The notes beneath the pieces are model-generated. The model searched no databases. It was given only the letters and a program-made list of their open reading frames with translations, and had not been told where the DNA came from. Made by a program: the position numbers and the translations under genes. A stretch of DNA of 64,000 nt from the NCBI GenBank assembly GCA_031262485.1, contig JAISHO010000009.1, positions 1-64,000 of the forward strand, in the 5' to 3' direction. This DNA comes from Propionibacteriaceae bacterium. GTDB taxonomy: Bacteria > Actinomycetota > Actinomycetes > Propionibacteriales > Propionibacteriaceae. Positions within the stretch are counted from its first letter, which is position 1. The number at the start of each line of letters is the position of its first letter. Below, one piece after another: positions 24,640-51,189 of this stretch.

Positions 24640-26940
24640 TCAGTGCATCGTCACCCGGACTCCCCCGGATTCGGTCCAGCTCAAGGTCGCGTTCTCGAAG
24701 TTTTGGCTCACTCCCCCGCCGAGCCGGGGCACTTCAGCCGAGGTGGGGAACCCGTAGTTCCCTGGGCCACCGTTGTCTCGATAGACGATCCCGATCGCGC
24801 CGTGGGTGGGCTGGGCGGCGGTGTCCTCCGACCAGTAGATCCGACCACCGGCGAACTCTTGGTAAACGCCTTTATCCGTGGCGATCTCCTCGGTGGTGGG
24901 GAACCCGAGATAGCTCGGCGCTCCGCCCAAGGCGAGATAACGCACGAGGATGCCGCCGTGGATATGGTGGGCGCCGGTCTCGTCCGACCAGTAGATCCGC
25001 CCGCCCTGGAAGTCTTGGTGGACACCGATCATGTTGCGCGCTCCGTCCCGGACGGGAACCTCTTCGCTGACTGGATATCCGAGATAGCTCTGGGGCCCCT
25101 GATCGGCCTCGTAGGTCGTTCCGATCGCACCGTGGAGACGGTAGGAGCCGGTCGAGGGCGACCAGTAGATCCGTCCGCCTTCGAACTGCTGATAGACCCC
25201 TTCATCGGAATTGCCGTTGACGGCGATCTCTTGACTCGTGGGATACCCGAGGAAACTGGCGGTGCTGCCGAGCGAGACGTACGTCTGGAGGATCGCACCG
25301 TGGACGCTGTAGGCGCCGGTGTTCGCCGTCCAGTAGATCCGTCCGTTGACGAAGGTTTGGAAGACCCCGTCCGCGGTCGTCGTGATCTCCGAACTGGTCG
25401 GGAACCCCAGGAAACTCGTCGGTCCTCCCAAGCCCATGTAGATGTCGCCGATCGTTCCCCAGGCTGGGTAGGTGTCGGTCGACGGCGACCAGAAACCGTA
25501 CCCGTTGGCGAAGATCGTGTAGTGGCCATCGCCGATCGGTTGTTCCAATTGGTAGGGAGAACCGAGGAAGCTCATGTCGGATCCGATGTTCTGCCAATTC
25601 TCCTCGATCTCGCTTCGGTCTGAGCTGGAGATGATGTCGGAGACACGGTTGCGCACGTTGCTCAATTGAGCGTCGAGGAATTCCCCGGCACAGTACGTGT
25701 CGCGGACCTGGCTGTGGCTGAAGATCACGGGAAGATCCACCTCGTTGAGCGTCACCTCGCCTAGAGGATCTCGATAGTTGTTCCCCAGTTTCCAGGCCAG
25801 GATCTGAGCCAGCCCTTCGAGGGCGCTCGCCGGAGGAGCTTCCGTGTTCCCGTTGACGAGGACGGCGATTCCGACCGTGTCGAGATCCCAGTCGATGGCG
25901 TGATACCCGTGCACCGGCAAGGCGATGCCACCGGCGCGACCTTCATAGATCGTCCCGAACCGGTCGACGAGGAAGTTATAGGCGATGTCGCACAACCCGA
26001 GCGACTGATGGTAGGCCTGCAAACCACGCACGATCCCCGGCGCATCTTCAGCGGCGTAGGAGTTGAACCCGGCCGTGTCGTGGACGACCGCGCCCCACAC
26101 CGTCGCGTCGTACGCCTGGGCGGGATCGCAGTCTGCCGGCGCCGAGGCCCCCCAGTCGCTTCGCATCGTGATGGGAGGTTGATCGACATACCCTTCGACG
26201 GCCTTATGATCGTCGACGAGCCGGGTTCGAGCCGTCGCCGAGGTGTCGATGAGGGTGACGGTGAAACCTTGGACAGAACCTGTCGCCGAGACGACTTCGA
26301 CCTCGATTCCGGTGGATGATCCGACCCATCCCGCCTCAGTGCCGTTGGTGACGCCGCTGATCTCCGCCTTGCCAGTCGTCGCATAACTGATCCACGGCGA
26401 CCACCCCGATCCTTGGTAGACCCGCACCCACAGCTGGGTGTCCGGATCGGAGGCCTGCGCCCAGTTGACGGCGACCATGGTGAAAGACGCGATGTCGGGG
26501 ACGCTCACCTGGGCGATCGTCTCTTGCCCGGGGACCGCCACCGAGGACTGAGTCACCGCTGGAACATCGACCGAGGTGACGGACGCCCCGTTCGCGTTCG
26601 TCGCCGCCTCGATATAAGGCGAGATCGCTCGTGTCGCCGGGGCGGACGACGTCAAGGGCGCGGCCTGTTCCGGGGCGGAATCGGATGCGCTGGGCGCCGG
26701 GTCGATCGGCTCGGCGGCCACCGGGGCCGCCGGTGTCTCCGGAGAGGGCGCCGGGGTCTCATCGGCCACCGAAGGGGTGGGCGTCGTCACCGTGTCGGAG
26801 TCGCTGTCGGCGACGACCGGATTCGGCGAGGTGGACGGTGGCGGCGACGCCGGGTCGGCGATCGCCGGAAGAGCGCTCGCTAGGACGAGAGCGAGACCAG
26901 CGACAGTAGCCCCGCAGGCACGACGAAAGAGAGTTCTCAT
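24640..26940 (-). CDS. Secreted N-acetylmuramoyl-L-alanine amidase with six LGFP repeats
   Basis: A 766-residue exported protein. Residues 1-29 form a signal peptide (RR near the start, hydrophobic core, cleavage near AIADP). A Pro/Ser/Thr-rich linker runs to about 105, followed by a beta-rich domain (110-240). Next comes a PGRP/amidase_2 domain (about 255-445), whose likely zinc ligands H287 (VVHDTAG), H409 (FSHSQV) and C417 (DTYCAG) are all present. The second residue of the usual HHT motif is Asp. Six LGFP-type repeats follow (LGSP, LGFP, LGYP, LGYP, LGFP, YGFP), with GGRIYWS and HGAI motifs between them. The enzyme should cut the peptide from peptidoglycan while the repeats hold it in the wall. 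It is a paralogue of the next gene upstream. Confidence 0.9.
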   Translation of the reverse strand: MRTLFRRACGATVAGLALVLASALPAIADPASPPPSTSPNPVVADSDSDTVTTPTPSVADETPAPSPETPAAPVAAEPIDPAPSASDSAPEQAAPLTSSAPATRAISPYIEAATNANGASVTSVDVPAVTQSSVAVPGQETIAQVSVPDIASFTMVAVNWAQASDPDTQLWVRVYQGSGWSPWISYATTGKAEISGVTNGTEAGWVGSSTGIEVEVVSATGSVQGFTVTLIDTSATARTRLVDDHKAVEGYVDQPPITMRSDWGASAPADCDPAQAYDATVWGAVVHDTAGFNSYAAEDAPGIVRGLQAYHQSLGLCDIAYNFLVDRFGTIYEGRAGGIALPVHGYHAIDWDLDTVGIAVLVNGNTEAPPASALEGLAQILAWKLGNNYRDPLGEVTLNEVDLPVIFSHSQVRDTYCAGEFLDAQLSNVRNRVSDIISSSDRSEIEENWQNIGSDMSFLGSPYQLEQPIGDGHYTIFANGYGFWSPSTDTYPAWGTIGDIYMGLGGPTSFLGFPTSSEITTTADGVFQTFVNGRIYWTANTGAYSVHGAILQTYVSLGSTASFLGYPTSQEIAVNGNSDEGVYQQFEGGRIYWSPSTGSYRLHGAIGTTYEADQGPQSYLGYPVSEEVPVRDGARNMIGVHQDFQGGRIYWSDETGAHHIHGGILVRYLALGGAPSYLGFPTTEEIATDKGVYQEFAGGRIYWSEDTAAQPTHGAIGIVYRDNGGPGNYGFPTSAEVPRLGGGVSQNFENATLSWTESGGVRVTMH

Positions 26941-27138
26941 GATCCATTCCCCCCGATCGGTCCGAACTGCTTCGGGAGTCTAGCGATTATGAGAGATTGC
27001 TAGTAGCGCTATTCTTATTTTTCCATGATGTGGGCATCCGGACATGACCGATGCGATCGTGCTAAATATCACACCGGTCGTGCCCGGATCGGCGAGACCT
27101 CTCGCCTGCCCGGTTCTCTCCCTCGCCGTGCGACCGTC

Positions 27139-50005: not shown

Positions 50006-51189
50006 GCTGAAGCTCCTCCGCTCACGATCGCGGCGCCAGTCTGATAATTCGGCGCCAGTTTCTCGTCGACCATCGTCAACGCCGAGGCGATCGCCATGTG
50101 CATGTCGAGATATTTGTAGGTGCCGAGGCGCCCGCCGAAGATGACGCCAGGCTCGGCCGCCATCCGGGTGCGGTACTCCTCGAGGCGGGCGCGATCCGAT
50201 TCGGTGTTGATCGGGTAGTAGGGCTCGTCCTCGTCGGCGGCGAAACGGCTGAACTCGCGCACGATGACGGTCGCGTCACGGGTGTACTGACGTTCCGGGT
50301 GGAAGTGGCGGAACTCGTGGATGCGAGTGTAAGGCACGTCGAGGTCGGCGTAGTTCATGACAGGGCAGCCTTGGAAATCCTCGATCTCCAAGACTTCCTG
50401 CTCGAGGTCGATGGTGCGCCAGCCGAGGCGGCCGGAAGCGTAGTCGAAGTAGCGGTCGACCGGCCCGGTGTAGACGACCGGGATCTTCCCGACGATGGCG
50501 GACTTATTGATCGGCTGGCTCTCGTCGAAGAAGTCGACGCCGAGGCGCACCTCGATGTTCGGGTGGTCGACCATGCGCTCGAACCAGGCTCCGTACCCGT
50601 CGACCGGGAGCCCCTCATAGGTGTCATTGAAATACCGATTGTCATAGGTGTAGCGCACTGGCAGGCGGGAGACGATCGAAGCGGGGAGATCCTCCGGCGC
50701 CGTCTGCCACTGCTTGGCCGTGTAATTCATGAAGAAGGCCTCGTAGAGGGGGCGGCCGACGAGGCTGACGCCCTTCTCGACGAAGTTGCGCGGCTCGGCG
50801 CCCTTGAGCTCCTGGGCCTGCTCCTTGATGAGCGCCTTGGCCTCACCGGGGCCCATGGCGGCTTTGAAGAATTGGTTGATCGTGCCGAGGTTGACCGGCA
50901 TCGGGTAGACCACGCCCTCATGGGTTGTGTAGACGTGGTGGACGTAGTTCGTGAACGCGGTGAACTGGGAGACGTACTGCCAGACCCGCTCGTTCGAGGT
51001 ATGGAAGAGGTGGGCGCCGTAGCGGTGCACCTCGATGCCGGTTCGCTCCTCCGGCGCGGAGTAGGCGTTGCCACCGAGATGGTCGCGACGGTCGATGACG
51101 AGCACCTTGCGCCCCCATTGGGAGGCGACCCGTTCGGCCACCGTCAGGCCGAACAGCCCGGCTCCTACAACGACGAGATCGGCTTCCAC
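50002..51189 (-). CDS. glf: UDP-galactopyranose mutase
   Basis: A 395-residue flavoenzyme that converts UDP-galactopyranose to UDP-galactofuranose, the donor for GlfT2. The FAD-binding motif [16 protein letters not shown] is at 6-21, and family blocks [19 protein letters not shown] and [14 protein letters not shown] are present. The GTG start has GGAGG 7 nt upstream. It is the first gene of the four-gene galactan operon glf-glfT2-wzm-wzt, whose members overlap or nearly touch; the 226-bp gap to divergent rmlB should hold the operon promoter. Confidence 0.97.

What the first reader, a model, noticed from the sequence alone, without database searches (positions are those of the whole stretch)
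24640..51189. Galactofuran synthesis/export operon physically surrounded by four secreted LGFP-repeat wall proteins
Seen: glf-glfT2-wzm-wzt in one overlapping operon, all dTDP-rhamnose genes, and four exported proteins with 5, 6, 6 and 8 LGFP-type repeats joined to amidase (twice), glucosaminidase and leucine-rich-repeat domains. Known: LGFP repeats occur in actinobacterial exoproteins and have been proposed to hold proteins in the wall of mycolate-making corynebacteria; GlfT2 builds the galactan of arabinogalactan. Inference: in this organism the LGFP modules bind the exported galactan, and enzymes plus polymer form one wall-building and remodelling system. No arabinosyltransferase or mycolate genes are in view, so it may be a simpler galactan.
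Basis: partly seen in the sequence, partly recalled or inferred. Interest (0 to 1): 0.75.

Follow-up and report, generated by a model that had tools for sequence, protein, structure and literature searches.

The report
Wall galactan locus with LGFP hydrolases
A bacterium in which two key arabinan-adding gene families of tuberculosis-type walls were not found carries a locus for building and exporting a galactose wall polymer, with a likely sugar-decorating enzyme set and four wall-anchored proteins, which suggests that parts of this wall design reach beyond the mycolic-acid bacteria.

Summary
All 25 LGFP repeats found in the held genome lie in this cluster. Emb and AftA were not found; AftB-D, DprE and mycolate genes were not searched.

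Across the phylum LGFP and GlfT2 co-occur beyond chance, and LGFP genes lie near glf/glfT2 in 10 of 10 family-f5 (probably Mycobacteriales) genomes and in 6 of 12 same-family genomes that have both. But LGFP is common in genomes with neither GlfT2 nor glf, 0 of 80 named GlfT2 loci have LGFP in flanks of at most 10 kb, and the family-level association is weak. LGFP looks like a general wall module, not a proven galactan reader.

It recurs with a PpgS-like synthase and DUF2304 near galactan operons, like the GalN-decoration pathway of arabinogalactan. Best reading: a wall galactofuran decorated outside the cell, with LGFP hydrolases remodelling the wall around it.

The parts
50002..51189 (-). 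glf, UDP-galactopyranose mutase
   Evidence: Pfam GLF E 2.2e-81; NCBIfam TIGR00031 338.1 bits, over its cut-off 303.75
47975..50005 (-). glfT2, galactofuran polymerase
   Evidence: Pfam Glft2_N, Glyco_tranf_2_3 and GlfT2_domain3; DDD and KWDD invariant in 14 aligned sequences
47073..47978 (-). wzm, export permease
   Evidence: Pfam ABC2_membrane; best NCBIfam match galactan_ABC_perm but far below cut-off
46343..47071 (-). wzt, export ATPase (the longer ORF runs to 47497)
   Evidence: Pfam ABC_tran; ATG start at 47071
51416..52414 (+). rmlB
   Evidence: Pfam GDP_Man_Dehyd/Epimerase; named rmlB by context
40320..41714 (+). rmlC-rmlD fusion
   Evidence: Pfam dTDP_sugar_isom + RmlD_sub_bind
39298..40173 (-). 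rmlA
   Evidence: Pfam NTP_transferase E 1.1e-69; named rmlA by context
38211..39113 (-). GT2 glycosyltransferase of unknown specificity (candidate linker/primer enzyme)
   Evidence: Pfam Glycos_transf_2; NCBIfam only weak matches
37417..38187 (-). GT2 resembling polyprenyl-phospho-GalNAc synthase PpgS
   Evidence: NCBIfam NF058614 E 4.5e-28, 98.2 bits, below its cut-off of 370
36941..37426 (-). DUF2304 small membrane protein, overlapping the GT2
   Evidence: Pfam DUF2304 E 5.3e-25; overlaps or adjoins the same GT2 in 10 of 10 other loci with a GT2 match over 200 bits
34777..36822 (-). DUF6541, predicted GT-C glycosyltransferase
33441..34823 (-). membrane protein, possible lipid-linked sugar flippase
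   Evidence: no Pfam or NCBIfam match; assigned only by position and the hydrophobic look of the translation
24640..26940 (-). exported-looking Amidase_2 + 6 LGFP
27139..29637 (-). exported-looking Amidase_2 + 6 LGFP
41793..43928 (-). exported-looking Glucosaminidase + 8 LGFP
   Evidence: LGFP part matches Protein PS1 6swz, E 1.7e-30
44287..46314 (+). exported-looking LRR + 5 LGFP

Best explanation
The locus builds a wall galactofuran and adapts the wall to it. Glf makes UDP-galactofuranose; GlfT2 polymerises it on a lipid carrier, probably behind a rhamnose-containing linker; Wzm-Wzt exports the chain; one of the genome's LCP proteins ties it to peptidoglycan. On the outer face a three-gene module decorates it: the PpgS-like GT2 with DUF2304 charges polyprenyl phosphate with a hexose, and DUF6541, a GT-C transferase, moves the sugar onto the exported galactan. 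Two amidases, a glucosaminidase and an LRR protein, each held in the wall by LGFP repeats, cut or organise peptidoglycan where the polymer is placed. Shown: gene families, a predicted GT-C fold, recurrent gene neighbourhoods, no Emb or AftA match. Inferred: export of the four proteins, linker, sugar identities, LCP attachment, acceptor, LGFP ligand.
For: Domains. All 25 LGFP matches of the genome lie in this cluster. Phylum co-occurrence: 16 of 18 GlfT2 genomes have LGFP against 46 of 328 others, p 2e-11; without own genome and f5, 5 of 7 against 46 of 328, p 0.001. LGFP in the stretch of about 10 kb either side of glfT2 in 10 of 10 f5 genomes, 7 of them as LGFP+amidase in one ORF (38), and in the held flanks of up to 20 kb in 6 of 12 same-family genomes with both (chance P 1.8e-4 at the most conservative). 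Of 20 LGFP loci read in GlfT2-negative genomes none lies among window-like polysaccharide genes, bar one weak GT2 match at a locus edge. Partner domains seen in LGFP proteins of galactan-linked or cluster-linked loci: Glucosaminidase, Amidase_2, YkuD, Esterase. The GT2-DUF2304 pair is together in 10 of 10 other loci with a GT2 match over 200 bits, with DUF6541 in the same locus in 9 of 10. GT-C fold: 76, 79, 82. DUF6541 lies beside a wzt-like gene in 4 of 10 f5 genomes. Five LCP matches in the genome. LGFP binding to peptidoglycan-arabinogalactan in MytA is reported in PMC11299179 (passages).
Against: No chemistry exists for this organism. LGFP abounds without GlfT2 (62 of 173) and GlfT2 without LGFP (11 of 24) in the family, and the presence/absence association there is only p 0.067. 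0 of 80 named GlfT2 loci have LGFP in held flanks of at most 10 kb. In G004, G028 and G410 an LGFP amidase exists but far from glfT2. Second GlfT2-like genes in three f5 genomes have no LGFP nearby. In two Nocardioides-type loci scanned the related amidase carries FG-GAP repeats and in one relative SLH repeats, so LGFP is replaceable. 5 of 10 linked LGFP proteins scanned show no catalytic domain. PpgS, Wzm and Wzt equivalog cut-offs are not met. 54 of 80 named loci show no DUF6541. The GT-C fold tells neither donor nor acceptor; rhamnose could serve another polymer.
Confidence: 0.58

Rival explanations
1. LGFP repeats bind peptidoglycan or any wall glycan. The four proteins are ordinary wall hydrolases or exoproteins that share the locus because envelope genes cluster, with no specific affinity for galactan.
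For: LGFP is common in genomes lacking GlfT2 and glf and is joined there to YkuD, polysaccharide deacetylase, M15 peptidase or GSDH-PKD in 7 of the 10 scanned, the other 3 showing LGFP alone. PMC12113857 (passage) describes LGFP domains as interacting with the peptidoglycan layer. The amidase's C-terminal module is FG-GAP or SLH in other galactan loci.
Against: 0 of 20 LGFP loci read in GlfT2-negative genomes are near window-like polysaccharide genes, bar one weak match, so LGFP does not simply gather in envelope clusters. Association with GlfT2 is strong at phylum level, and glf alone shows none in the family (39).
Confidence: 0.45
2. The galactan operon is an acquired cassette that landed beside resident LGFP genes; adjacency is an accident of insertion.
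For: GlfT2 of the window and G149 nests with Promicromonosporaceae/Cellulomonadaceae (up to 72% identity), away from 20 of the 23 family rows. Three such relatives have no LGFP match in their genomes. G+C falls to 57-63% in 32-48 kb against about 65-70% over most of the flanks.
Against: Adjacency recurs with other GlfT2 lineages. In the window LGFP genes lie on one side of and between the polymer genes, in two separate pairs.
Confidence: 0.2
3. The rhamnose genes, the GT2s and DUF6541 make an unrelated polysaccharide next to an independent galactan.
For: Only 6 of 80 named GlfT2 loci show an rml match and 26 of 80 DUF6541 in their held flanks. Some f5 genomes have DUF6541 45-49 kb from glfT2, though beside wzt-like genes.
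Against: DUF6541 lies in the read flanks of GlfT2 in 26 of 80 named loci, 10 of 24 family genomes and 4 of 7 other phylum genomes outside f5, far more often than a random gene would (no formal background rate was measured).
Confidence: 0.25

Closest known systems
Galactan part of the arabinogalactan pathway of Corynebacterium/Mycobacterium (Glf, GlfT1, GlfT2, Wzm-Wzt)
   Same: Glf, GlfT2 with all three domains, ABC exporter, rhamnose genes, LCP proteins in the genome, LGFP proteins near glf-glfT2
   Different: No Emb or AftA match in the genome; no GlfT1 recognised in the proteins scanned; Wzm/Wzt below the NCBIfam galactan-exporter cut-offs
PpgS (Rv3631)-Rv3632-Rv3779 galactosamine decoration of arabinogalactan (PMC9671496 and PMC3485146, passages)
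   Same: GT2 polyprenyl-P-sugar synthase-like + small membrane protein + multi-TM transferase; DUF6541 beside wzt-like genes in 4 f5 genomes
   Different: Reported acceptor there is arabinan; here no Emb or AftA was found. PpgS cut-off not met; the Rv3779 and Rv3632 sequences were not compared
MytA/PS1 (6swz, 6sx4) LGFP domain
   Same: Homologous LGFP repeats by sequence (E 1.7e-30)
   Different: MytA is a mycoloyltransferase; here LGFP is joined to amidase, glucosaminidase and LRR
Ami3 (Rv3811, MSMEG_6406) wall amidase
   Same: Amidase_2 domain (PMC3987819, passages); near glf in gene order, by recall
   Different: Orthology not established; window has two paralogues with 6 repeats each
Three-component extracytoplasmic glycosylation (PMC11127046, passages)
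   Same: Lipid-linked donor synthase, possible flippase, GT-C
   Different: No polyprenyl phosphoribose synthase recognised among the proteins scanned; the GT2 resembles hexose-type donors

Membership tests
LGFP repeat proteins (PF08310) | tandem LGFP repeats over gathering cut-off | tested here: met
   25 matches over the cut-off
GlfT2 | Glft2_N + GT2 + GlfT2_domain3, DDD and KWDD motifs | tested here: met
   catalytic role of the motifs recalled
UDP-galactopyranose mutase | TIGR00031 over cut-off | tested here: met
   338.1 against 303.75 bits
Galactan exporter Wzm-Wzt equivalog | NF050108/NF050109 over cut-off | tested here: not met
   172.9 against 400 and 40.6 against 380 bits
Arabinogalactan-type wall | Emb and AftA arabinosyltransferases in the genome | tested here: not met
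   PF04602 and PF12249: no match in own genome, control C. glutamicum rings; genome 95% complete
Arabinogalactan-type wall | AftB-D, DprE1/E2 | not tested
   no search run
Mycolate envelope | mycolate synthesis genes | not tested
   no search run
PpgS | NF058614 over cut-off | tested here: not met
   98.2 against 370 bits
DUF6541 (PF20176) | gathering score | tested here: met
   534.4 against 29 bits
GT-C fold | structural match to GT-C glycosyltransferases | tested here: met
AftA | PF12249 AftA_C domain | tested here: not met
   whole genome; only DUF6541 matched this protein
Ami3/Rv3811 | orthology; Amidase_2 + LGFP beside glf | tested here: inconclusive
   architecture and neighbourhood match; named Ami3 sequence not compared; linkage gained or lost about 8 times on the amidase tree
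LGFP as galactan binder | binding to galactan | not testable with these tools
   needs protein and walls

The most novel reading that the evidence does not exclude
DUF6541 with its GT2 and DUF2304 partners is an old galactan-decorating system shared by mycolate and non-mycolate actinobacteria, and arabinan was a later addition in mycolate bacteria. In the lineages that keep LGFP hydrolases beside it, LGFP modules read the decorated galactan to place wall cutting.
Probability: 0.3. Interest if true: 0.75.

Novelty: new variant of a known kind. Interest (0 to 1): 0.55.

Why it matters
It would give a family of unknown function (DUF6541) a testable role, show that galactan of the arabinogalactan type, its decoration and its LGFP wall enzymes can exist without the Emb and AftA arabinosyltransferases, and offer harmless model bacteria in which LGFP binding to galactan can be separated from arabinan and mycolate.
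Full report
OBSERVATION. Pfam and NCBIfam confirm glf, glfT2, an ABC permease and ATPase, rmlA, rmlB and a fused rmlC-rmlD. The four LGFP proteins are real and carry 6, 6, 8 and 5 repeats over Pfam's cut-off in the DNA search; the protein scan counts 6, 6, 7 and 5 stretches at E 0.001. All 25 LGFP matches of the held genome (2.84 Mb, 49 contigs, 95% complete) lie between 24652 and 46308 of the window. 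Signal-peptide-like N termini are visible in the translations but no predictor was run.

THE ORGANISM has no name in these tools. The window has 65% G+C. Its genome has no Emb match and no AftA match, while C. glutamicum rings as control in both. It has five LCP matches, one of them partial. AftB-D, DprE and mycolate genes were not searched.

CO-OCCURRENCE. In 197 genomes of the same family, 24 have GlfT2, 75 LGFP and 77 glf. LGFP occurs in 13 of 24 GlfT2 genomes against 62 of 173 others (p 0.067). With three or more repeats it is 12 of 24 against 27 of 173 (p 3.5e-4); glf alone shows nothing (p 0.48). The three-repeat threshold was one of four tried (1, 3, 4, 5), all; the genomes are related, so these p values are too small. 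In 346 genomes of the phylum, 21 match GlfT2; I dropped three weak ones (G341, just over the cut-off, and G445 and G509, under it), leaving 18. LGFP is in 16 of 18 against 46 of 328 (p 2e-11); without the own genome and family f5, 5 of 7 against 46 of 328 (p 0.001); counting the weak ones, 5 of 10 against 46 of 325 (p 0.009). One search scored at most 18 candidates a genome, so some LGFP may have been missed, in large genomes above all. f5 is probably Mycobacteriales: its main GlfT2 copies score 276-298 bits against 172 or less elsewhere, and two of its LGFP proteins carry an esterase domain, as mycoloyltransferases do. This name is my inference.

NEIGHBOURHOOD. Flanks of up to 20 kb were read for the 23 other GlfT2 genomes of the family, less where contigs end. 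LGFP lies in them in 6 (G149, G067, G033, G081, G051, G057), that is 6 of the 12 that have any LGFP. Counting every repeat as a separate gene, chance gives P 1.8e-4. In G067 one ORF with a glucosaminidase domain and 18 LGFP adjoins glf; 18 is also the number scored for its whole genome, where 32 of 39 candidates were scored. In f5, 10 of 10 genomes have LGFP in the stretch of about 10 kb either side of the main GlfT2, 7 of them as an LGFP+amidase ORF; relatedness makes these one or few events. Three f5 genomes have a second GlfT2-like gene (31-32% identity to the window's), without LGFP nearby. Of the 7 other phylum genomes, G335 has an LGFP amidase just beyond wzt and DUF6541, about 5 kb from glfT2. 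G453 has LGFP about 33 kb from glfT2, beside a second wzm-wzt with DUF6541 and the GT2.

CONTROLS. I read 20 LGFP loci from 13 GlfT2-negative genomes of the family, picked from the top-scoring matches and not at random. Apart from one weak GT2 match (28%) at a locus edge, none lies among window-like polysaccharide genes. Of 7 LGFP loci read away from glfT2 in GlfT2 genomes, 2 (G051, G453) lie among such genes and one (G410) has a weak wzt match. In the 10 GlfT2-negative proteins scanned, LGFP goes with YkuD, polysaccharide deacetylase, M15 peptidase or GSDH-PKD in 7 and stands alone in 3. In 10 linked or cluster-linked proteins scanned, 5 have Glucosaminidase, Amidase_2, YkuD or Esterase and 5 show LGFP alone.

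AGAINST A GENERAL RULE. The genome-contig scan with GlfT2 kept the best 80 named loci of at least 567. None has LGFP in the held flanks of at most 10 kb, although 16 of 34 of those genomes searched have LGFP somewhere. In 24 of 80, mostly Nocardioides, an amidase related to the window's is in the flank, in 23 just after wzt and in Antribacter about 8 kb off. The two of these scanned from Nocardioides carry FG-GAP repeats in place of LGFP, and in family member G086 the amidase carries SLH repeats. So an amidase is a partner in some lineages without LGFP, and its tail is replaceable. LGFP amidases also exist away from glfT2, in G004, G028 and G410. An amidase tree of 37 rows needs about 8 gains or losses of linkage.

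ORIGIN. GlfT2 of the window and of same-genus G149 (99/91 support) nests with Antribacter, Xylanimonas and a Cellulomonadaceae MAG (95/79 for that node) and with Cellulomonas. 20 of the 23 family rows lie in the other half of the tree; G065, on a long branch, is the third family row near the window; G096 was left out. Three of those relatives (L127, L128, L130) have no LGFP match in their genomes. This points to transfer of the operon and local assembly with LGFP genes; support for the exact node is moderate.

LGFP BINDING. The LGFP part of the glucosaminidase protein matches the PS1/MytA structures. PMC11299179 (passages) reports that pull-downs showed MytA LGFP domains interacting with peptidoglycan-arabinogalactan, citing Dietrich et al. 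2020, which I did not read. PMC12113857 (passage) speaks of the peptidoglycan layer. Binding to galactan itself is open.

VERDICT. A real and well-read locus. The genetic link of LGFP wall enzymes and galactan synthesis is supported in some lineages and fails in others. The stronger new lead is the decorating module with a predicted GT-C enzyme in a genome without Emb or AftA matches. On checking I lowered confidence in the best explanation from 0.60 to 0.58 and raised the third rival from 0.20 to 0.25, because only 6 of 80 named loci show rml genes.

Noticed in passing
14798-23459: recC, recB and recD genes in a row, with a UvrD-HRDC helicase gene at 12588-14825.
   Followed up: no
57222-57911: AbiEii-type nucleotidyltransferase, near tRNA-Val (58301-58374).
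   Followed up: no
32000-48000: G+C is 57-63% here against about 65-70% over most of the flanks.
   Followed up: partly
L131:2048-8620: Three tandem DUF6541 genes beside glf in Actinomyces massiliensis.
   Followed up: no
L259:8770-11907: One ORF with Amidase_2, seven LGFP and Glucosaminidase, near DUF6541 and rmlA in G051.
   Followed up: partly
L143:13820-16720: Nocardioides amidase just after wzt with FG-GAP-like repeats in place of LGFP.
   Followed up: partly
L056:6910-7662: In same-genus G149 an LGFP L,D-transpeptidase (YkuD) sits just after wzt, where the window has the LRR-LGFP gene.
   Followed up: no
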